Position numbers and translations under genes: made by a program
The notes under the pieces: generated by a model
The model's input: only the letters and a program-made list of their open reading frames with translations
Database searches by the model: none
Told to the model about the DNA's origin: nothing
Source: Chloroflexota bacterium
Lineage (GTDB): Bacteria; Chloroflexota; Anaerolineae; Anaerolineales; Villigracilaceae
NCBI GenBank assembly: GCA_024434165.1
Contig: QMIW01000047.1
Coordinates: 1-33,167 of the forward strand
Direction: 5' to 3'
Length of the DNA: 33,167 nucleotides
Shown: piece by piece, positions 9,110-17,725 of the stretch
Numbering within the stretch: position 1 is the first letter of the stretch
Layout of the letters: each line of letters starts with the position of its first letter

Positions 9110-10450
9110 TTACGGTGTGGATGAAATTTCGCCAATCATGTTCCCTGCAAGCCACGCCCCATTGTTGGTCAACTGATAGCCGCCGCCGCTGGATTCGATC
9201 AGGGCATGGGCAAGCCAGCGTTCCAGGAGCGAACTGCCGTCCATTTTCCGCGCGTTCAGTTCGGCGGCAAGGCTGGGCGCGATGCGATTCGATAGAACCG
9301 CAGTGACCAGGGGTTTATTCTTTTGCTCCAGCGGGTTTTCGAACAAACCGCCCTCCAGTCCGGGCAGACCGCCGCCAGTCGAGCGGAGGTAGGCGGCGTA
9401 GCGCGGATGCCGGTAGTGATAATTGCCGAACACACCGTCTGCGATCGTGCCGACGGCGAGCAGGTCTTCACCGCGTATGGGATGGGTGAAGTAGATGTTT
9501 TTATCCCGATCGTTTGCCCAGTGGTTGAATAGATTTTTCCGGCAGCCCAGCGCGGAGAGCATGTTTCCGCCCGCCTGGAAAAGGAAATAATTTGCCAGAT
9601 GACTTCGCTCCAAAAGGTGATGCCTTTTTGCCCACTCACGGTTTTGGGGATAGATCAACAATTCGTAGAGAGAAAACCCGTCTGTGCCGCACTCTGCCAA
9701 TGCCTGAATACCAGCAAGCCAGCCGGTCATGGTTTGCTCTGGAAGCCCGCAAACCAAATCCACGCTGACGACCCATCCCATCACCTTATGCCGTACGATG
9801 CACTCCAGCGCCTCCGCCGGGCTTTGCCGCCTGCCGATCGCTGCCCGCGTCACCGCTTCAAGGCTTTGAACGCCGACATGCAGCCGCCGGAAGCCCAGAT
9901 CGTGCAGGCAGGCAGTCATGGACGGTGTGAGCGACTGCACCGTGGATTCGAGCGCCCATTCGGTTTCGTTCGTGATATTGAAAGCGTTTCTGATGCAAGC
10001 CGCCAGCCGTTCCAGTGATTTTGTGTCGAGAAAAGTTGGTGTGCCTCCGCCCAGATGCACCGATGTGACGGGTCTTTCGGTCAGCCCTCCCTGCGCGCTC
10101 CATAAACGCAGTTCCTTGCAAATCCTTTCCGCATAGTCCTTCACCCGGCTATCGGTGTGGTTTCCCAGTTTGAACGAATAACTGTCGCAGAAGCCGCATT
10201 TGCTCGTGCAAAACGGGATGTGAATGTAGATGCACATGGGCTGATCGGACCGGCTGTCTGCTGCCGCCTGCCGCGCCGCCTTCCAGGCATCAAGTCCGTT
10301 ATGTTCGTAAGGACGCTTCGCCCAGACCGGCAGCGGAAGTTGCCATCGTTCAATGTCATAGACGGGGGCAAGGGACGTCCACTCTTTGCGGATCTTGTCC
10401 GCGTGGATGGCTTCGGGGAGATGAGAGAAGAAATCGTCGAACGGGTTCAT
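9110..10450 (-). CDS. HemN/HemW-like radical SAM enzyme (possible class C methyltransferase-like)
   Basis: 446 aa. After an N-terminal extension of about 70 residues comes the HemN-type cluster motif IYIHIPFCTSKCGFCDSY, with Cys 81, 85 and 88 and the Tyr before the first Cys typical of coproporphyrinogen oxidase-like proteins. LGGGTPTFL near 135 (SAM contact) and HVGVQSLE follow, and the C-terminal ~110 residues look like the HemN_C region. Relatives include HemW (haem chaperone), ChuW/HutW and class C radical SAM methyltransferases of natural-product pathways. It is the last gene of an operon full of peptide-maturation-type radical SAM genes and its ATG overlaps the upstream stop (ATGA), so a tailoring role fits better than haem synthesis. 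That is inference. ATG 10450 was chosen over an upstream in-frame ATG for this coupling. Confidence 0.78.
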   Translation of the reverse strand: MNPFDDFFSHLPEAIHADKIRKEWTSLAPVYDIERWQLPLPVWAKRPYEHNGLDAWKAARQAAADSRSDQPMCIYIHIPFCTSKCGFCDSYSFKLGNHTDSRVKDYAERICKELRLWSAQGGLTERPVTSVHLGGGTPTFLDTKSLERLAACIRNAFNITNETEWALESTVQSLTPSMTACLHDLGFRRLHVGVQSLEAVTRAAIGRRQSPAEALECIVRHKVMGWVVSVDLVCGLPEQTMTGWLAGIQALAECGTDGFSLYELLIYPQNREWAKRHHLLERSHLANYFLFQAGGNMLSALGCRKNLFNHWANDRDKNIYFTHPIRGEDLLAVGTIADGVFGNYHYRHPRYAAYLRSTGGGLPGLEGGLFENPLEQKNKPLVTAVLSNRIAPSLAAELNARKMDGSSLLERWLAHALIESSGGGYQLTNNGAWLAGNMIGEISSTP

Positions 10451-11794
10451 AGGCGGTGCAGCCAAACCTCGCTGTTTTTCTTCTGGGAAGCCCGTTCGAG
10501 CAGCAGCCCCTCTGCGATTTGCAGATTGACCAGGCATCGAAAACTTCCCTTTGGCGAGCCGCCCGTCAACGCGCAATGATCCGGGCAGGCGCGGTTACAG
10601 TGGAAGCGATTGAAGCAGGCAGCGCAGGAAACCGGCATGACGGCGAGCCGCTCCTGCAAAAAACGAATGTATTCGGAATCCAGTTGAAATACATTTCGAG
10701 AGTGATCGCCTTTTCCGACGATGAATCCGCTTTGACGCGCCTGGCTCTCGTCGCACGCTTCATAACAGACGGCGGCGCAGCCGCCCGGTATCAATTGCAG
10801 GACGGAGCGGTGAATTTGACAGTACGAATCGTGCAGTTCGTTCAGCCTCACGCCAGACGTTTGCCAGGGAATATGATACGACCGGCATACCTGCCGCGCC
10901 CTGAAAAATTCTTCGACAAACTCATTTGCGTCGTCCGGTTGAAAGCGGTACCCCTGATTTCCGTTTCCCCGGTACACCGGTTCAACGTCTATCTCCTGCG
11001 GCTGGATTTCTTCGCACAAATACTGCGCGATCTCCGTCTGGCGGCGCAGCGCGGCTGGCGTAACCGTGACGCGCACATGCAGGGGCTTCCCGCTCTGGCG
11101 GACCATCCGCGCCGTTCGCTCGACGAACATGGAACTGGATCGTCCATTGCGAAGGGGGCGCTGAATGGATTGAATCTCCTCCGGTCCATCGCACGACAGC
11201 CCGATCAAATCAAAGTGCTCTGCCAGCCATCCCGCCCTGCGTTCCGACATCACCCCATTGGTGGCGATATATTTGAAGAGACTCACCCCAAGGTTGGCTG
11301 CCGCGGCTTCGACGATTTCCAGCGCCTGCGACACCCACGCCAAATCGAGAGCCGGTTCCCCGCCTCCGTGAAAGACGACCGTCATCGGCTGGTTTTGAAG
11401 GAGGCAATTCCTTGCCGCCGTCTGCGCCGCGGCGCAGACGGCGTTCAACGATAACGATTCCTTTTGCCAGGCTGCACCGGTTGTGCGGATACAACGTGAG
11501 CCTCATCGGCATGAACGGTTTCGAGAGATGCGCTTCCCATGCCTGTTCCACTGCCGACGCTGTCTGCACGAGGGTTTGAGCCGCTTCGGTCAGTGTCACC
11601 CCGCTGCCGCCGGGAAGGAAGCGCGGTTTGCGTCCATGTTCGGATGCCAGCGCCAAATGCCTGTCCATCTCATCGGCTGAATCGGATGGGACTCCCGCCA
11701 GGCAGCCCGGGGTGTAATAGAGCGTTTGCCCATCGAGGGAAGCCTTGAAAATGGGCAGCGATGAATTGGGCAGGGGCGCAAATTTCGAATCCAG
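10447..11794 (-). pseudogene. Broken radical SAM/SPASM enzyme: start codon lost, cluster motif deleted, frameshift
   Basis: The N-terminal part (11794 to about 11465) reads as a normal relative of the SPASM enzyme at 12262: DGQTLYYTPGCLAGV, then RLTLYPHNRCSLA. The first codon in frame after the upstream stop and a GGAAGGG ribosome site is CTG; the next ATG is 42 codons in. Right after RCSLA, where the second and third cysteines of CX3CX2C should follow, the coding match jumps frame and continues as KESLSLNAVCAAAQTAARN, then VVFHGGGEPALDL and an intact SPASM tail (CAACFNRFHCNRACPDHC). Aligned by eye to the neighbour, about 35-40 nt carrying the remaining cluster cysteines are missing at about 11461-11470. 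The downstream 333-codon frame has only a TTG start at 11448. As written it cannot bind the usual 4Fe-4S cluster. Confidence 0.75.
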
Positions 11795-11803
11795 ATGCCC
11801 TTC

Positions 11804-12265
11804 CTATTTTGGGAGCAAAGGCTCGCAGATCAGGCAAAGGACCAGCCAGAGAAACAGACCGCGAACGTAATCGAAGCTGTGTTCAAAACTCCAGTGGTTT
11901 TCCTCCGCCATCGAATTGGCAATTTCACGCAGGGAATTGAAGCCGTTCATTTGATTGAAGGCATGCAGGGCGGGCGAGTTGGTGCCGAACAAACGCAGCG
12001 GTTTCTCGAACGATTTCGGCTGTCCGTACACCTGCCCATCCTTCACGCTGACCTTCACCCCCGGGTTGATTTTCGGAATGACGCCGCCGAGTTTCTCGTC
12101 GTCCCACGTTCCCAGTTCGTCCAACCCGTGTGCGGGAGCGTCTGCGCAGCAGGCATGGAGGTTATCCAGCAGGCTTGGGAGAAATTGCCGGCGGGTGATG
12201 CGAAACGCCAGCCAGCCGCGCGGGAAGGCTTCGAATGCAAAGGGGTCGGTTTTCGCTTCACTCAT
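11804..12265 (-). CDS. PqqD/RRE-like protein of the radical SAM operon
   Basis: 153 aa, starting at an ATG that overlaps the stop of the radical SAM gene before it (ATGA). The C-terminal ~60 residues (SPALHAFNQMNGFNSLREIA, then a final hydrophobic helix) match the PqqD pattern of an aliphatic helix, an NG turn, a S/T-leading helix (normally TVEEIA) and a last helix. PqqD-like domains (RiPP recognition elements) hand precursor peptides to radical SAM enzymes. The N-terminal ~70 residues are unfamiliar: WLAFRITRRQFLPSLLDNL, then CC and a KINPGVKVSVKDGQVYG strand pair. A much longer in-frame ORF extends upstream, but it lies inside the neighbouring gene. Assignment to PqqD is by pattern only. 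Confidence 0.55.
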   Translation of the reverse strand: MSEAKTDPFAFEAFPRGWLAFRITRRQFLPSLLDNLHACCADAPAHGLDELGTWDDEKLGGVIPKINPGVKVSVKDGQVYGQPKSFEKPLRLFGTNSPALHAFNQMNGFNSLREIANSMAEENHWSFEHSFDYVRGLFLWLVLCLICEPLLPK

Positions 12266-13626
12266 GGATGCGCCCCCGGATGGAACTCCTGAATCGTGCC
12301 GCTGTGTGCGCCTGCGCGGGTGAATCCGCACACGCCGCTGCCCTCCGCAATTTTTTTCAGGATGAGCGCCTCGGTCAACTTGCGGTTGATCTGGCAGCGT
12401 TCGCCGCGCTTTGCGGGGTCGTCGCTTTCGGAAGAAAAACTGCGGATGTAACAATCTCCCGCGCACGACCAGTAACAGAAGCAGTCCCTGCACGCCTCCC
12501 GCCTCGCCCCGAGCAGGGTATGCAGCCGGCGCCTTGCTCTCTCGTCCAGATGGATGCGCCCGTCTTTTAAATACCCGATGGTGGAAACATCGTTCATCGC
12601 ATGACTTTGCCCAGCCAGTTCATAGCAGGCAACCAGTTGACCGAGGGGGTTGATAATCAACGCCTGGAAAGGCGCGGTGCAAAAAGTATCCAGAAGCAAG
12701 CCGATCCGCGCGCCGGAATATTCCAAACGCCTCCCTGCCTTTGCGGCGATCTCCTCCGCTTCGAGAAAGGCATCCACGAACGCCTGCCCTTCGCCGGGGA
12801 GCGCATCCCCATGTGTGCCGCGTTGGATGTGGAAGGTTGGCTCCACGTGGAAACTTTTGCAGCCCGTCTCCCGGCAAAGGAACTCGATTTCCTTCGGAAA
12901 GCCCTCCCAGGGTGCCGCTGCCGTCAGGCGGATCGAATACTCAAAACCGCGCCGGTCCATCTCGTTGAGGTTCCGCCAGACAGCCTCAAAGGATTCCTTC
13001 CCTGAGGCAAACGGGCGGCGCTCGTTCTGCGTTTCAGGGCGTCCATCCATCGAAAGACTCACGCCGTCGAGGTTGGAGACGATCCATTCGCATTGGCGCT
13101 TCGACCATACGCCGTTCGATGTCAGCGTGATTCTGGCGGGTAACGGTTTCTGCCGCGCATGGGCGGTGCAGGTCTGCACGGTCTGCCATGCCAGCGACGG
13201 TTCCCCTCCTCCATGAAACGACACTTCAAAGGCGCGCGCTTTCTGCTCCTGTGCGTTTGCGCAGACCAGGTCAATGGCTTGTTTGCCCAGTTCTTCCGGC
13301 AGGTCCATCCCCGGCATGGAGCCCGCCGCGGCGTAACAATAGACACACCGCAGTTGACAGCGATTCGTCATGAGGAGCACAGCCAGAATGGGGCGGAACA
13401 GCCTGCCCGTCTGGGGTGGAGGCGATGGGTCGGCGCGGAGGAATCCGACCGAGGATAGAAACCGCATCGCCTCGCCCTCGACGTTGAGCGGGGCGCTGGT
13501 TCCCCCAGCCGTCACCCGCTGACAGAGTTCCGCCATTGCCGCATTCCCCACAAAAGCCAGCCCCAACAGCGGGCGGTAGATCAGGACTTGCCCGGTTCCA
13601 TCCAGGCGGTGTGTGTAGAGCTGCAT
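12262..13626 (-). CDS. Radical SAM/SPASM peptide-maturase-like enzyme
   Basis: 454 aa. An N-terminal ~80-residue domain with DGTGQVLIYRPLLGLAFVGN is shared by the two other SPASM genes of the operon and may be a recognition domain. The cluster motif is TNRCQLRCVYCYAAAG (Cys 90, 94, 97), followed by VSFHGGGEPSLAW (~135-147, SAM contact), TLTSNG, and VSLSMDGRPETQNERRP. The SPASM region with auxiliary-cluster cysteines spans about 330-430 (CTAPFQALIINPLGQLVACYE, then CRDCFCYWSCAGDC and a final CQINRKL). Family members install thioether, C-C or other crosslinks in peptides or activate enzymes. It starts 3 nt after the stop of the Cys-tailed WD40 lipoprotein gene, which makes that protein the natural candidate substrate. 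Confidence 0.85.
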   Translation of the reverse strand: MQLYTHRLDGTGQVLIYRPLLGLAFVGNAAMAELCQRVTAGGTSAPLNVEGEAMRFLSSVGFLRADPSPPPQTGRLFRPILAVLLMTNRCQLRCVYCYAAAGSMPGMDLPEELGKQAIDLVCANAQEQKARAFEVSFHGGGEPSLAWQTVQTCTAHARQKPLPARITLTSNGVWSKRQCEWIVSNLDGVSLSMDGRPETQNERRPFASGKESFEAVWRNLNEMDRRGFEYSIRLTAAAPWEGFPKEIEFLCRETGCKSFHVEPTFHIQRGTHGDALPGEGQAFVDAFLEAEEIAAKAGRRLEYSGARIGLLLDTFCTAPFQALIINPLGQLVACYELAGQSHAMNDVSTIGYLKDGRIHLDERARRRLHTLLGARREACRDCFCYWSCAGDCYIRSFSSESDDPAKRGERCQINRKLTEALILKKIAEGSGVCGFTRAGAHSGTIQEFHPGAHP

Positions 13627-13629
13627 GAG

Positions 13630-15018
13630 TCAGTTTGGATACCAATAATGGTAGACAGGCGCGCTGTATCCGACACAGGAGCAGGGGTTGTAGCTGACAC
13701 AGGCGCAGCCCGAGCCTGCCACGCAATTGCAGACGCACACCGCGCCCGGCGGAATCGGCGCGCCGCAGGGCAGGGTGTATGTGATCGTCCGCCCTTCCAC
13801 TTCCACGGAGACCTCGATTCCCTCCACGGCGGGCAGGCTCACCTTCAAGTCGAACAGGCAGCTGAACTCCTCCATGTCCGGGAAGGTCCACAGTTTGATG
13901 ATGCCTTCGATATCTCCGGTAGCCATCAGGTTGCTGTACGGACTGACCGCGAAGACCGAAGCGCCCGTAGTCATGGACCGGCTTGGGTTAAGCTCGGGAA
14001 ACGGCCAAACGGTGATTTCCCCGTATTCGTTTAGCGCGATGAATTTGCCGTCTGAACTGAAGACCAGCGGGGACGATGGATATTTGCCCAGGTCGCCGAT
14101 CACCTCGCCATCCGGCAGGGAGCGGAGCGTGGCGGCGTAGAATTCATCGCCGGTTGCAAGCGTCTTCCCATCCGGGCTGACGGCGACGAACTTGGCGAAC
14201 TCTTCGATGGTCGTGATCAACTCGCCGTCCGGCAGGGACCAAACCTGAACCTGGGCGCCATCGGACGAAGCCAGCGTTTTGCCGTCGGCGCTGATCGCCA
14301 GGAAGAGCGCCGTTCCATCCAGATTCTTGATCAGTTCTCCATCCGGCAGCGACCACAACTGAATGCGCCCATTATCCGCCGCCGACACCAGCATACTGCC
14401 GTCCTTCGTGATCGCCAGCATGGTGGCGAACTCGCTGAGGGTTTTGATCAACTTTCCGTCCGCTGCGGAGAGGAAGCGGATGGTATTGGATGCGCCAGCC
14501 GCAACAACATAGGTGCCGTCGGGGCTGAGCGCCGCCGCCGTTGTGCCGGTTGTGATGGAATTCAGCAAAGCGGCGTTCGGCATGGACCAGATTTTCAACT
14601 TCCCTTCCAGTTCGCTGATCGAAATCAGCGTAAGGCCGTCGGAGCCGATTTGCATCATGGAAACCTGTTCCTTGTGCGCCTTGGCTCCCGCCTGGCATTC
14701 TCCCGGCAGGAAGGTTGGGGTGGGCGTGGGCGTGTTTGTGGGGGAGGGTGTAATGGTGGGCGTCTTCGTCGGAGTGCGGGTGGGGGTGTTGGTGGGCGTG
14801 CGTGTGGGCGTGCGCGTACTGGTTGGCGTATCGGTTGGCGGAGGCGCGAGCGGGTTCGAGCAGCCTGCCAGCGCCGAGCCTGCCGCGAGCATCCCCGCCG
14901 CTTTGAGGAAATCGCGGCGGGTCAATTTCAACCTGCCATCCTCCTTCCGCACGGCGTAGACTTCCGGTTCTTCCTGTTGCTGGTTTGAGTTTGTATCTGA
15001 GTGGTCCTGGGTGGTCAT
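13630..15018 (-). CDS. Tat-exported WD40 lipoprotein with octad Cys-rich C-terminal tail (candidate maturation substrate)
   Basis: 462 aa. The N-terminus has a twin-arginine motif (TRRDFLKAAG, R34-R35) and lipobox LAGC (Cys 53). A Thr/Pro stalk runs over about 58-105, made of repeated TPT units. A beta-propeller of WD40-like blades spans about 112-400, with repeated SPDGK/SADGK and SLPDGELI units. The C-terminus is extraordinary: eight Cys between 418 and 448, including three successive octads CNCVAGSG, CACVSYNP and CSCVGYSA, and the protein ends PVYHYWYPN. AAGGA lies 8 nt before the ATG. It sits in the middle of an operon of radical SAM and PqqD-like genes. I infer that the tail is enzymatically modified before or after export. 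Alternatives are metal binding by the CxC motifs or a disulfide-rich knot. Confidence 0.85.
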   Translation of the reverse strand: MTTQDHSDTNSNQQQEEPEVYAVRKEDGRLKLTRRDFLKAAGMLAAGSALAGCSNPLAPPPTDTPTSTRTPTRTPTNTPTRTPTKTPTITPSPTNTPTPTPTFLPGECQAGAKAHKEQVSMMQIGSDGLTLISISELEGKLKIWSMPNAALLNSITTGTTAAALSPDGTYVVAAGASNTIRFLSAADGKLIKTLSEFATMLAITKDGSMLVSAADNGRIQLWSLPDGELIKNLDGTALFLAISADGKTLASSDGAQVQVWSLPDGELITTIEEFAKFVAVSPDGKTLATGDEFYAATLRSLPDGEVIGDLGKYPSSPLVFSSDGKFIALNEYGEITVWPFPELNPSRSMTTGASVFAVSPYSNLMATGDIEGIIKLWTFPDMEEFSCLFDLKVSLPAVEGIEVSVEVEGRTITYTLPCGAPIPPGAVCVCNCVAGSGCACVSYNPCSCVGYSAPVYHYWYPN

Positions 15019-15039
15019 GGAATTTTCCTTTCTCTTCTC

Positions 15040-16047
15040 TTATGAGTTCGAAACCGGCACGAATTGCAAGTTGTGGATGTCCGCCGGTCGAAAGCGGCGC
15101 ATCGCAGCGGCAAGGCAGCCGCCAGTACATTCCCTGCGCGCTTTGAATCCGCAGGACGAACACGTGGGATAAACGCCCGCGGCGCGAGCATGCCGGGTTT
15201 GTTCGACCAGCCTATCGCGGAGTTCGGAGGCGCTCGACCCCGCCTTCATCTGGACCGAAAACCTGTCTGCCAGCGGGAAGCAGTGGCAGGCGGCGCCGTT
15301 CAGGTCAACATCCAGGATGGGCGAGCATTGATAATTTACCTCCGAGCCAGCCTGCCTGAGCGCGCCAAGTTCTTCTTCGGAAAACATACAGCGGACAAAC
15401 CCGCAGTCGAACTCGAAGCGGATGCCATGCGCCCCGGCGGTCTTCGCAAAGCCCGCGATTCTTCCCGCCACGTGCGGGTAGCGCTTGGGGTGCAGATGAA
15501 TGTTTCCACCGGCGAGGCTTGGGTGAGCCAGTCCCAGCCGGATGATTCGCCGGGAACCGGCTTTTATGATGGACTCCATGATTGGCAGAAGGTCGAAGTT
15601 TGGGGTATGGATGTTGAAACTGACCGCCGCGAGATGTCCAAGCCTTTTCAAGGTCCTGTTGCGCGCCGCGTCCAATTCTTCGCTGCGGGAAACATCCCCT
15701 CCGCCGGCGTTCATGTTTACAAGCAGGGTGCAGTCTTTTTCCGGGAGACCCTCCAGATAAGCGAGCAGGGATTCTTTGAGAAACCCGTGTGTAAATATCA
15801 TCACTTGCATTCCAGCCCGGCGCGCCTCCTCGATCAACTCACGGATTTGCGGGTGAAGGGTTGGTTCCCCTCCGATCATGCGCACGGAGTTGATCCCGGA
15901 ACGTTTCAGATAACCCAGCCTTGCGGAAAAATCCGCGCGGGAGATGAAGCGCTGGTCGTCCGACTGCCTGCCGGACTGCATGAGCCCCGCCGCAAAGCAG
16001 AAGGGGCAGTTCATATTGCAGACCCGGGAAATCACCAGGTTGCTCAT
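15040..16047 (-). CDS. Radical SAM enzyme with SPASM-like C-terminus
   Basis: 335 aa. The cluster motif is at the very N-terminus, ISRVCNMNCPFCFAAG (Cys 10, 14, 17), with no recognition domain in front. VRMIGGEPTLHP is the SAM-contact motif. VNMNAGGGDVSRSEELDAAR and SFNIHTPNF follow in the barrel. C-terminal cysteines (QCSPILDVDLNGAACHCFP, then CSSCGFKARRECTGGC) suggest auxiliary clusters. This is a different subfamily from the two large SPASM proteins beside it. Its ATG overlaps the stop of the PqqD-like gene upstream (ATGA), a typical PqqD-PqqE-like pairing, and it lies 21 nt before the WD40 lipoprotein gene. The more upstream ATG at 16089 is inside the PqqD gene and was rejected. Confidence 0.82.
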   Translation of the reverse strand: MSNLVISRVCNMNCPFCFAAGLMQSGRQSDDQRFISRADFSARLGYLKRSGINSVRMIGGEPTLHPQIRELIEEARRAGMQVMIFTHGFLKESLLAYLEGLPEKDCTLLVNMNAGGGDVSRSEELDAARNRTLKRLGHLAAVSFNIHTPNFDLLPIMESIIKAGSRRIIRLGLAHPSLAGGNIHLHPKRYPHVAGRIAGFAKTAGAHGIRFEFDCGFVRCMFSEEELGALRQAGSEVNYQCSPILDVDLNGAACHCFPLADRFSVQMKAGSSASELRDRLVEQTRHARAAGVYPTCSSCGFKARRECTGGCLAAAMRRFRPADIHNLQFVPVSNS

Positions 16048-16355
16048 GGCGCTGAACCGCCGTCTTCCAGCAAGCCTGCTTCCTGCCATGCGCGCAGGTG
16101 TTGGTTGATTTCCGATGCGGCTTCAATGGGGGCGATGTTGTTCATTGCGCCCAGCAGCCGGGCGCATTGTGACAGCGAAACGCCCATGCACAGCCAGCCC
16201 CAAAGCGCGGCGGCATCCCCCTCCAGCTGCTTTGTGACGCCTTTCTCTTCATCAATAAGCAGCGTGAAATTCGCATCCCGAACCCAGTACAGGTTTCGGG
16301 GTGCGCGTAATCGTATGGAGGGCGTCGTCTGCCCGGGTTGGGATATGTCGCTCAC
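16044..16355 (-). CDS. PqqD-family peptide chaperone (RiPP recognition element)
   Basis: 103 aa, the size of a stand-alone PqqD. Three N-terminal strands (RLRAPRNLYWVRDANFTLLI) carry a DEEKG hairpin. Helices follow: QLEGDAAALWGWLCMGVSLS is the usual aliphatic-Trp helix and turn, then EINQHLRAWQEAGLLED closes the winged fold. PqqD-like proteins bind the leader of a precursor and dock it on a radical SAM enzyme. The gene overlaps both neighbours by 4 nt (ATGA at each end), so it is translated in step with the two radical SAM genes around it. Confidence 0.72.
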   Translation of the reverse strand: MSDISQPGQTTPSIRLRAPRNLYWVRDANFTLLIDEEKGVTKQLEGDAAALWGWLCMGVSLSQCARLLGAMNNIAPIEAASEINQHLRAWQEAGLLEDGGSAP

Positions 16356-17725
16356 GCCATTTCACTTATGTGGTCGGATGACTGGCACGCAAACCGCGTC
16401 ATGGCGGCTTCATCAGCCAGCCATTCGGTTGCCAGGTCGTTTTCGTTCAATCGCCGTAATAGATTGGCGGTCGTCACCAGCCTCGTCTGCATACAGGTAT
16501 CGTCATACCTGCCGTTGGAATGGTTTCCGTTCCGCCGGACGTGACACCCGCCCGCACAGTGGCAGCGGCACAGGCAGTTGATACAGCCCGGTTTATCCCC
16601 GTTGGCAAATGCAAGGATTCCCTGCAAAACGTTTTCGTTAAGGTCGAACTTCCCGGCGCGGACATTTCCCAACCGGAAATCCAGACCCGCCTCCCTCCAC
16701 GTTTTCTCTGGAAGGTAGCAGGCGTCCACCGCACCGTCCGGCGAGACGATGAGCGCATTCCTGCCCACCGGGCAGAGCGTGGTGCGGCATACGGAAACAT
16801 CCGTGGTGGAATGGACCGCCGCAATGCCGTGCGCCTCCAGGATTTGCGCTGAAGCATGAAACTGGCGGGCAAATTCGAGGAGGTCGGGCGGGAGTAAACC
16901 CGTATTGGCGGATTGCGCGGTGGGATGTACGCTCTCGAAGCAGACCGCTTTTGCGAGGAACTCTTCGACGATCCAGCCCGCTATTTCCGTCATGCGGTGC
17001 GCGGTCCTCTGGCTGATGCAGGAACGGATGATCAAATCCGCCGAGCCGGATGAAATGATCTTTGCGTTCCTATAAACGATTGGAAATACGGGCTTGCCGT
17101 TTCTGGCGGGACGCTGGCTTTCCTGAATGTCCGGCGGACCATCCAAGGACAGGATGACGGCGTCGAAGTGGTCCGCCGCCCAGGCGGCGGTCTCTGCATC
17201 GAAGATGCCATTCGTTGTGACTTCAAAATGAACGTCCATTGCCCGTTCTTCCGCTTTCCGCCGGGCATACGCAACTGAAAAATAAACGACCTCGGGTGAA
17301 TGGAACGGTTCGCCCCCAAAGAACTGAACGTCGGCGCGCCCGCCTTTCTCTTCGTCCAGGATGTCGAAATAAGCGTCTATGACCTGTTTCGCCATCGGCA
17401 GGGACATGGCGCTTCCCGCGGACTGACCGGCGATGAAGTCGCAGTATACGCATTGCAGGCTGCACGAACGGGTTGGGATGATTCCCAGAAAAAGCGGGGC
17501 GATTCCACGAACCTGCCGGGCGGCTGGAGGCGCGAACGGAGTTTCCTTCAAGGATTTGTAGAGGGGTTGAATTTGGCGCGGAACGGTTCCCCCGTTTTCC
17601 AGACATCTGCGAAGCGTTTGAGCGGCGCTCTCATTGGTTAATGCGGTTATTCCCTGTAGTGGCGAATAGATCAACACCCTGTCCAATACGGGAATCGCAT
17701 AATACCTGGAGAATGCGGCGTCCAT
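16352..17725 (-). CDS. Radical SAM/SPASM enzyme, first gene of the maturation operon
   Basis: 457 aa. The N-terminal domain has LDRVLIYSPLQGITALTNESA, related to the same region of the gene at 12262. The cluster motif is PTRSCSLQCVYCDFIAG (Cys 88, 92, 95), followed by VQFFGGEPFHS (133-143), TTNGIFDAETA and LSLDGPPDIQESQRPARNG. SPASM-type cysteines cluster near the C-terminus (CPVGRNALIVSPDGAVDACY, then CINCLCRCHCAGGCHVRRNG and a late Cys). It resembles His-Xaa-Ser and anaerobic-sulfatase-type maturases in layout. The ATG lies just downstream of a plausible promoter, with little or no untranslated leader. It is co-directional with seven downstream genes and linked to the next by a 4-nt overlap. 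Confidence 0.85.
   Translation of the reverse strand: MDAAFSRYYAIPVLDRVLIYSPLQGITALTNESAAQTLRRCLENGGTVPRQIQPLYKSLKETPFAPPAARQVRGIAPLFLGIIPTRSCSLQCVYCDFIAGQSAGSAMSLPMAKQVIDAYFDILDEEKGGRADVQFFGGEPFHSPEVVYFSVAYARRKAEERAMDVHFEVTTNGIFDAETAAWAADHFDAVILSLDGPPDIQESQRPARNGKPVFPIVYRNAKIISSGSADLIIRSCISQRTAHRMTEIAGWIVEEFLAKAVCFESVHPTAQSANTGLLPPDLLEFARQFHASAQILEAHGIAAVHSTTDVSVCRTTLCPVGRNALIVSPDGAVDACYLPEKTWREAGLDFRLGNVRAGKFDLNENVLQGILAFANGDKPGCINCLCRCHCAGGCHVRRNGNHSNGRYDDTCMQTRLVTTANLLRRLNENDLATEWLADEAAMTRFACQSSDHISEMA

What the first reader, a model, noticed from the sequence alone, without database searches (positions are those of the whole stretch)
9110..17725. Eight-gene operon: several radical SAM enzymes and PqqD-like proteins around one exported Cys-tailed WD40 lipoprotein
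The order is SPASM enzyme, PqqD, radical SAM, WD40 lipoprotein, SPASM enzyme, PqqD-like, broken SPASM enzyme, HemN-like enzyme, linked by ATGA overlaps or short gaps. No short precursor peptide is present; the only plausible substrate is a 462-aa folded lipoprotein with a repeat-rich Cys tail. RiPP-type modification of the tail of a large surface protein would be an unusual system. I know of no described family with this gene set, but could not search.
Basis: partly seen in the sequence, partly recalled or inferred. Interest (0 to 1): 0.88.

Follow-up and report, generated by a model that had tools for sequence, protein, structure and literature searches.

The report
Enzyme cassette modifying exported protein tail
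A block of eight neighbouring genes, found in scattered Chloroflexota bacteria, appears to chemically modify the cysteine-rich end of a protein that is then exported to the cell surface; that end stays recognisable while the surface domain it is attached to is swapped, and no description of such a system turned up.

Summary
On the minus strand, 17725-9110, lie eight tightly packed genes A-H: SPASM enzyme, PqqD-like protein, radical SAM enzyme, Tat-exported WD40 lipoprotein with a Cys tail (D), SPASM enzyme, second PqqD-like protein, a SPASM enzyme broken by one 38-nt deletion, and a HutW/HemN-like enzyme. The cassette recurs, order mostly kept, in 17 Chloroflexota genomes of two classes. What is conserved in D is not WD40. 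The display domain is swapped (WD40, bacterial SH3, NBR1-type Ig, none recognised), while two parts stay: an N-terminal motif P-x-V-[FY]-[ATD]-[VL] just before the Tat signal, and the Cys tail ending in YW[YH]P[NC]. In these 17 genomes strong matches to the N-terminal profile occur only in D proteins. B and the C-terminal part of F are predicted to have the leader-binding (RRE/PqqD) fold. Best reading: a RiPP-like system whose leader is the n-region of a Tat signal and whose "core" is a permanently attached C-terminal tail, modified in the cytosol before export. That D is the substrate is strongly supported by sequence. That the modification is thioether cross-linking is inferred; this window's tail has no Asp/Glu. 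Function outside the cell is unknown. Ten paper searches found no description.

The parts
16352..17725 (-). Gene A: radical SAM/SPASM enzyme, 457 aa
   Evidence: best NCBIfam PapB 2.4e-31, below cut-off; CteB 5wgg, 2.4e-20; 13 Cys conserved in 14/14 rows
16044..16355 (-). Gene B: stand-alone PqqD/RRE-fold protein, 103 aa (GTG start)
   Evidence: pLDDT 86; TbiB1-leader complex 5v1v 2.3e-5
15040..16089 (-). Gene C: radical SAM enzyme with further conserved C-terminal cysteines (probable start 16047)
   Evidence: 12 Cys conserved in 14/14 rows
13630..15018 (-). Gene D: Tat-exported lipoprotein, 462 aa: leader-like N-terminus, Tat signal with lipobox Cys53, Thr/Pro linker, WD40 domain, Cys tail; the proposed substrate
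14950..14967 (-). Codons for P-E-V-Y-A-V (residues 18-23) of the N-terminal motif before the Tat RR
   Evidence: (P18, V20, R34, R35, F37 invariant in 15/15 rows)
14860..14925 (-). Twin-arginine signal and lipobox (residues 32-53)
   Evidence: TIGR01409; PF10518; lipobox LAGC by eye
13633..13767 (-). Cys tail, residues 418-462 (45 aa, 8 Cys, four CxC)
12262..13626 (-). Gene E: radical SAM/SPASM enzyme, 454 aa; found in all 17 genomes
   Evidence: SCIFF maturase 7.8e-32, below cut-off; CteB 5wgg 8.3e-20
11804..12265 (-). Gene F: 153 aa, N-terminal part without known relatives plus PqqD/RRE-fold C-terminal part
   Evidence: pLDDT 78; PqqD 5sxy, lasso B1 6jx3, PbtF RRE 8t19; weak E-values
10447..11760 (-). 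Gene G: radical SAM/SPASM enzyme, broken here by one 38-nt deletion near 11472 that removes part of the CxxxCxxC motif; N-terminal limit approximate
9110..10450 (-). Gene H: HutW/HemN-like radical SAM enzyme
   Evidence: HutW 3.2e-58, 197.6 bits, cut-off 400; HemN 1olt, NocN 9p2u

Best explanation
This is a RiPP-like maturation cassette whose substrate is a large exported protein. Steps: (1) D is made with an acidic N-terminus carrying P-x-V-[FY]-[ATD]-[VL], which acts as leader; the RRE-fold proteins B and/or F bind it [inferred from motif, exclusivity and fold]. (2) In the cytosol the SPASM enzymes A, E and G, the enzyme C and the HutW-like enzyme H act on the C-terminal Cys tail [substrate supported by linkage and constraint; order and division of labour inferred]. 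The most likely chemistry for A and E is thioether (ranthipeptide-type) cross-linking of the CxC units; G, C and H may add other changes, for example at the terminal HYWYPN [weakly inferred]. (3) The finished protein leaves by Tat, which exports folded, matured proteins; signal peptidase then removes leader and Tat signal together, and in most D proteins the lipobox Cys is lipidated [from the signal type]. (4) The modified tail stays attached, held out on a linker with a swappable domain. Its job outside (metal or redox group, or a chemically tough binding group) is unknown; I favour a redox or metal site, at low confidence.
For: Same cassette in 17 genomes, order mostly kept. In one sample of 396 class genomes the tail profile hit 9 and the F profile hit 9, with 8 shared (Fisher p 6e-15; related genomes, so p is only a guide). 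All 19 D proteins end in YW[YH]P[NC]. The carrier domain is swapped while tail and leader stay. In the genus the tail has dN/dS 0.02-0.06 against 0.18-0.22 for WD40. The leader profile gives 18 strong hits in 16 of 17 genomes (E at most 1.1e-12), all in D reading frames, then a gap to E 0.006. B and F match RRE folds. A and E are nearest to thioether-forming maturases. The relatives examined keep the radical SAM cysteines.
Against: No biochemistry. This window's tail and those of the two same-genus relatives have no Asp or Glu, so Cys-to-Asp linkage cannot be general. Two tails (G420 second, G773 first) lack the added CxC units, and one (G162) lacks the CGxxxPxGxxCxCNCV part. The enzyme set is not constant: H was not found in G107 and G113 and only a weak match exists in G351, which also lacks F and G; A was not found in G027. 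G is broken in this genome, so it is dispensable, or the system here is decaying, or the assembly is wrong. Two D proteins have no obvious lipobox. The constraint contrast is weaker for signal plus linker (dN/dS 0.07-0.23), and tail values rest on 51 codons. F matches RRE structures only weakly, and its top two rows are a methyltransferase.
Confidence: 0.72

Rival explanations
1. D is a giant carrier-leader: the modified tail is cut off outside and released as a peptide product or signal.
For: RiPP logic; between C and D, G351 has a U32-peptidase-like gene (PF01136, 19.0 of 22.4 bits) and G162 a gene that resembles it by eye but has no Pfam hit itself.
Against: No peptidase or transporter was seen in the cassette shared by the genomes. 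The tail follows a linker and a surface domain of the kind kept on cells, 16 of the 18 D proteins whose N-terminus was seen have a lipobox by eye, and no common cleavage motif is evident before the tail.
Confidence: 0.12
2. The tail is an unmodified metal-binding (metallothionein-like) or Fe-S tail, and the enzymes make something else, such as a cofactor that D carries.
For: CxC repeats suit metal binding; non-RiPP roles of SPASM enzymes are known (recalled).
Against: RRE-type proteins point to peptide substrates; the N-terminal motif is confined to D; tails with only 4 Cys still occur with the cassette; carriers are unrelated, so there is no common enzyme to receive a cofactor.
Confidence: 0.1
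3. A and E make C-C cross-links (cyclophanes) at the aromatic C-terminus rather than thioethers; the Cys serve as metal ligands or disulfides.
For: The C-terminal [HT]YW[YH]P[NC] is the most constant part of the tail (19 of 19); some SPASM enzymes join aromatic residues to nearby residues (family names; details recalled).
Against: Nearest families and nearest solved structure of A and E are thioether formers; 16 of 19 tails have four or more CxC.
Confidence: 0.15
4. Ordinary neighbourhood: unrelated radical SAM genes beside a WD40 lipoprotein by chance.
For: WD40 and Tat proteins are common in this genome.
Against: Order kept across genomes of two classes; co-occurrence of tail and F.
Confidence: 0.01

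Closest known systems
Ranthipeptide systems (SCIFF with CteB/ScfB-type maturase; freyrasin with PapB)
   Same: SPASM enzymes nearest to A and E by profile and by solved sequence; Cys-rich core. The review PMC8326336 (passages read) reports Cys-Thr links in SCIFF and six Cys-Asp links in freyrasin; that PapB is the freyrasin enzyme is recalled.
   Different: There the precursor is a short peptide. Here it is an exported protein of about 240-460 aa, with up to three SPASM enzymes plus two more radical SAM enzymes and two RRE-like proteins. All scores are far under the NCBIfam cut-offs.
QhpD / quinohemoprotein amine dehydrogenase
   Same: [quoted passage not shown] A and E hit its model weakly.
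   Different: Hits far below cut-off (86.7 and 70.1 of 453 bits); the substrate there is one enzyme, here a tail on interchangeable carriers.
SynChlorMet (Scm) and GeoRSP multi-radical-SAM cassettes of NCBIfam
   Same: Several radical SAM genes with a PqqD-like gene (names; cassette make-up recalled).
   Different: ScmF 34.2 of 400 bits and GeoRSP 29.2 of 400 bits for C; ScmD weak match to 1 of 12 B proteins (0.012). Not members.
HutW/ChuW and class C radical SAM methyltransferases (NocN)
   Same: H matches HutW (197.6 bits) and NocN (1.1e-19).
   Different: Below the HutW cut-off of 400; no heme-uptake gene among the eight.
PQQ and lasso-peptide PqqD/RRE proteins
   Same: Fold of B and of the C-terminal part of F.
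   Different: No Pfam hit; F has an N-terminal part without known relatives.

Membership tests
RiPP (ribosomally made, post-translationally modified peptide) system | Gene-encoded substrate with a conserved recognition (leader) part and a modified core part | tested here: inconclusive
   Conserved N-terminal motif confined to D and conserved Cys tail; recognition and modification themselves not shown
RiPP system | Leader-binding RRE/PqqD component | tested here: met
   B model matches RRE structures clearly, F model weakly; by fold only, binding not tested
RiPP system | Chemical modification of the core shown | not testable with these tools
   needs mass spectrometry
RiPP system | Short precursor whose leader is cut to release a peptide | tested here: not met
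   Precursors of about 240-460 aa; no shared peptidase or transporter seen
Ranthipeptide (SCIFF/PapB) family | Maturase above the NCBIfam cut-off for SCIFF or PapB | tested here: not met
   A: PapB 109.2 of 340; E: SCIFF 110.7 of 425
Ranthipeptide family | SPASM-type enzyme with CxxxCxxC and C-terminal auxiliary cysteines | tested here: met
   conserved Cys in 14/14 rows of A and 16-17 of 17 rows of E; Pfam SPASM itself below cut-off for A (17.1 of 21.5)
Ranthipeptide family | Non-alpha thioether links in the product | not testable with these tools
   needs MS/NMR; the window tail has no Asp/Glu
SynChlorMet cassette | Scm proteins above model cut-offs | tested here: not met
   ScmF 34.2 of 400; ScmD only 1 of 12 B proteins, E 0.012
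GeoRSP system | GeoRSP radical SAM/SPASM above cut-off | tested here: not met
   29.2 of 400
Tat-exported lipoprotein (D) | Twin-arginine signal followed by lipobox Cys | tested here: met
   TIGR01409 23.2 of 16.7 and PF10518 22.7 of 22.7 bits; LAGC at residues 50-53 by eye; two relatives lack a clear lipobox
HutW equivalog (H) | Score above the curated cut-off | tested here: not met
   197.6 of 400

The most novel reading that the evidence does not exclude
A new class of protein maturation in which a RiPP-type leader is built into the n-region of a Tat signal. RRE proteins bind it, serving both to present the C-terminal tail to up to five radical SAM enzymes and to hold back export until the tail is finished; signal peptidase then does the leader cleavage. 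The result is a standard, radical-SAM-made chemical head group that can be mounted on any surface domain (WD40, SH3, Ig-like) of Chloroflexota.
Probability: 0.45. Interest if true: 0.9.

Novelty: new variant of a known kind. Interest (0 to 1): 0.82.

Why it matters
Radical SAM/RRE systems are mostly thought of as makers of small peptides. Here five radical SAM genes and two RRE-like proteins serve a tail that is fixed to the end of unrelated exported proteins. If true, it links RiPP chemistry to Tat export, predicts a new use of RRE proteins (recognising, and perhaps proofreading, Tat substrates), and gives a defined, testable substrate module for finding new cross-links. It also suggests that genome mining limited to short precursor genes overlooks such systems.

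Tried and rejected
Reading the WD40 domain as the substrate or as a cofactor enzyme: rejected, because carriers are unrelated. A hidden short precursor gene: rejected inside the operon, as gaps are about 43 nt at most. Membership in SCIFF, PapB, QhpD, SynChlorMet, GeoRSP, HutW: all under cut-offs. An Asp-acceptor thioether as the general chemistry: rejected for this window, no Asp/Glu in its tail. The phylum-wide hit in G688 (E 7e-4) was dropped: its match holds two TGA stops and no cassette gene was matched in the 12 kb fetched. The second hit in G351 lies in the same D protein and was not counted apart. The single genome-contig scan used one protein and found only two close relatives, so distribution outside Chloroflexota was not measured. 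In one search the first motif match in one C protein (L038) was a false one; the alignment replaces it. No extra gene was shared by the loci: an unknown 260-aa gene between E and F in G505 and G162, U32-like genes in G351 and G162, a kinase in G162, a membrane protein in G107 and G113. Trees of A, C and E share the main groups but have open forks and, for E, long branches, and were not used to argue transfer.

Literature: ten searches. Searches returned no paper; one irrelevant listing; one, checked by passages and irrelevant; some searches were seen as listings with starts of abstracts (one search listed 20 of 458, 15 of 34). Passages were read in PMC8326336 and PMC11748557, which reports RiPP and RRE clusters in Anaerolineae; the passages seen do not describe this one.

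Full report
Setting. The window is a contig of a Chloroflexota genome assembly (G000:C122; 4.4 Mb, 173 contigs).

What is there. Eight genes on the minus strand, A to H, occupy 17725-9110. A, E and G are SPASM-type radical SAM enzymes of about 450 aa. C is a radical SAM enzyme with extra conserved cysteines. H is HutW/HemN-like. B and F are small. D is a Tat-exported lipoprotein with a Thr/Pro linker, WD40 repeats and a 45-residue tail with 8 Cys. Genes overlap by GTGA/ATGA or lie about 3-43 nt apart (sequence). G carries a single 38-nt deletion at about 11472 and is otherwise open and 80-82% identical in DNA to intact copies in G131 and G137. The ends of the lost stretch look alike by eye in the G131 copy, which suits slippage in the cell; an assembly error is not excluded.

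It is a conserved cassette. Searching 150 family genomes with A, 396 class genomes with the tail and with F, 400 phylum genomes with the tail, 158 genomes of the class of G773 and 56 of the order of G505 with F gave 17 genomes in all, this one included; the samples overlap, and several genomes are close kin (11 genera). Ten of the 17 were found by the tail itself, and in all ten the enzymes lie beside it. The order is A-B-C-D-E-F-G-H where contigs allow. Exceptions: in G107 and G113 A lies after G; G420 has a second D between G and H; G773 has two D side by side, and its G and H lie about 70 kb away, with genes that look like transposase genes beyond F. D and E were seen in 17 of 17; A, B and C in 16 (not G027, whose contig starts inside D and where one search found no A at E 1e-30); F and G in 16 (not G351; G broken here); H in 14 (not G107, G113; only a weak match in G351). 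In the 396-genome class sample 9 genomes have the tail and 9 have F, 8 shared. Tail only is G351, which has A, B, C and E. F only is G162, which does have a D protein, with a tail too divergent for the first profile.

What is conserved in D. Nineteen D proteins were read, some cut by contig ends. Carriers: WD40 in 5 (this genus x3, of which only the window's was run against Pfam; G420 second; G773 first), SH3_3 in 10 (below cut-off in G107; G113 by near-identity to it), NBR1-type Ig in 2 (G420 first, G162), none recognised in 2 (G773 second; G027, where the contig starts inside the linker). All 19 end in [HT]YW[YH]P[NC]. Eighteen carry CG[SA]xxPxGxxCxCNCV; G162 does not. Most add CxC units, often as the hexapeptide CTCDTV: 16 of 19 tails have four or more CxC, and Cys counts run from 4 to 16. 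The second D of G420 and the first of G773 have no added units. Within the genus the tail changes less than the propeller: dN/dS 0.057, 0.018, 0.048 against 0.221, 0.179, 0.176 for the three pairs; signal plus linker lies between or overlaps (0.232, 0.119, 0.073) (51 tail codons and high dS, so single values are rough). The other matches to D in this genome do not reach the tail.

A leader-like motif. In all 15 D N-termini aligned, a mostly acidic stretch is followed by P-x-V-[FY]-[ATD]-[VL]-x-[KR] and then the Tat motif RRxF. A profile of this stretch, searched in all 17 genomes, gave 18 hits with E from 5e-19 to 1e-12, all in D frames; two of them, in G371 and G972, are the contig-end starts of D behind A-B-C. 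The next best, E 0.006, covers only profile positions 22-41, the Tat end. The only genome without a strong hit is G027, whose D starts off the contig. The profile was built from these proteins, so the point is the absence of others, not the scores.

Leader readers. B is predicted as three strands and three helices (pLDDT 86), best matched by TbiB1 bound to its leader peptide (2.3e-5, TM 0.73/0.84), then lasso B1 and PqqD. F (pLDDT 78, low over much of its first 50 residues) matches PqqD, lasso B1, TbiB1 and the PbtF RRE over its C-terminal part, with weak E-values (6.6e-3 to 0.12) but high probabilities; its two top rows are a methyltransferase, Rv2067c. A few B proteins also hit PqqD families weakly.

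Chemistry. A and E are closest to thioether-forming maturases by profile (PapB, SCIFF, nif11-type, QhpD; G also to sulfatase maturases) and by solved sequence (CteB, 5wgg), none near a cut-off. The relatives examined keep the radical SAM cysteines (A, C, E; G and H). The review PMC8326336 (passages) states that such enzymes link Cys to Thr, Asn, Asp or Glu. The CTCDTV repeats of other genomes would offer Thr and Asp, but this genus has no Asp or Glu in the tail; the Asn of CxCNCV is present in 18 of 19 and is a candidate acceptor. So thioether formation is my first guess, not a finding. H resembles the methyltransferase NocN as well as HemN, so methylation is possible.

Mechanism. Modification in the cytosol followed by Tat export of the finished protein fits the signal type, and signal peptidase II would remove leader and signal together (established knowledge of Tat lipoproteins). 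That the same RRE proteins hold back export is a bold extension with no direct evidence. What the tail does outside is open.

Novelty. Elements are known (RRE, SPASM enzymes, Tat lipoproteins). The combination - a swappable, radical-SAM-served C-terminal tail with its leader in a Tat n-region - was not found in ten literature searches of an open-access library (listed under Tried and rejected). No NCBIfam family matched 11 tails, and no Pfam family matched 9 F proteins. I rate it a new variant of a known kind, with a fair chance of being more.

Noticed in passing
window 11472 (gene G): The 38-nt deletion lies between two stretches that look alike in a relative, as expected from replication slippage; G is otherwise intact, so the loss is recent or an assembly error.
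   Followed up: partly
L059 9807-10634 and L038 7255-8052: A similar unknown gene of about 260 aa sits between E and F in two genomes (G162, G505); the G505 copy has no Pfam hit. A possible extra cassette member.
   Followed up: partly
L059 5178-6125 and L043 3315-4268: Genes alike by eye between C and D in G162 and G351; the G351 one hits Peptidase_U32 below cut-off, the G162 one nothing. G162 also has a protein kinase gene there.
   Followed up: partly
L060 13034-15372 (G773:C4): Gene pair that looks like an IS21-type transposase pair (by eye) beyond F; G and H of this genome lie about 70 kb away, so the cassette was split.
   Followed up: partly
L045 1621-2979 and L060 8361-9551: Second D proteins with WD40 carriers whose tails keep the CGSxIPAGAVCTCNCV part and HYW[YH]PN but have no added CxC units; both genomes also have a D with such units.
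   Followed up: partly
L025 10914-13100: In genus g17 a 728-aa open frame that looks like a membrane protein, no Pfam hit, lies between G and A.
   Followed up: partly
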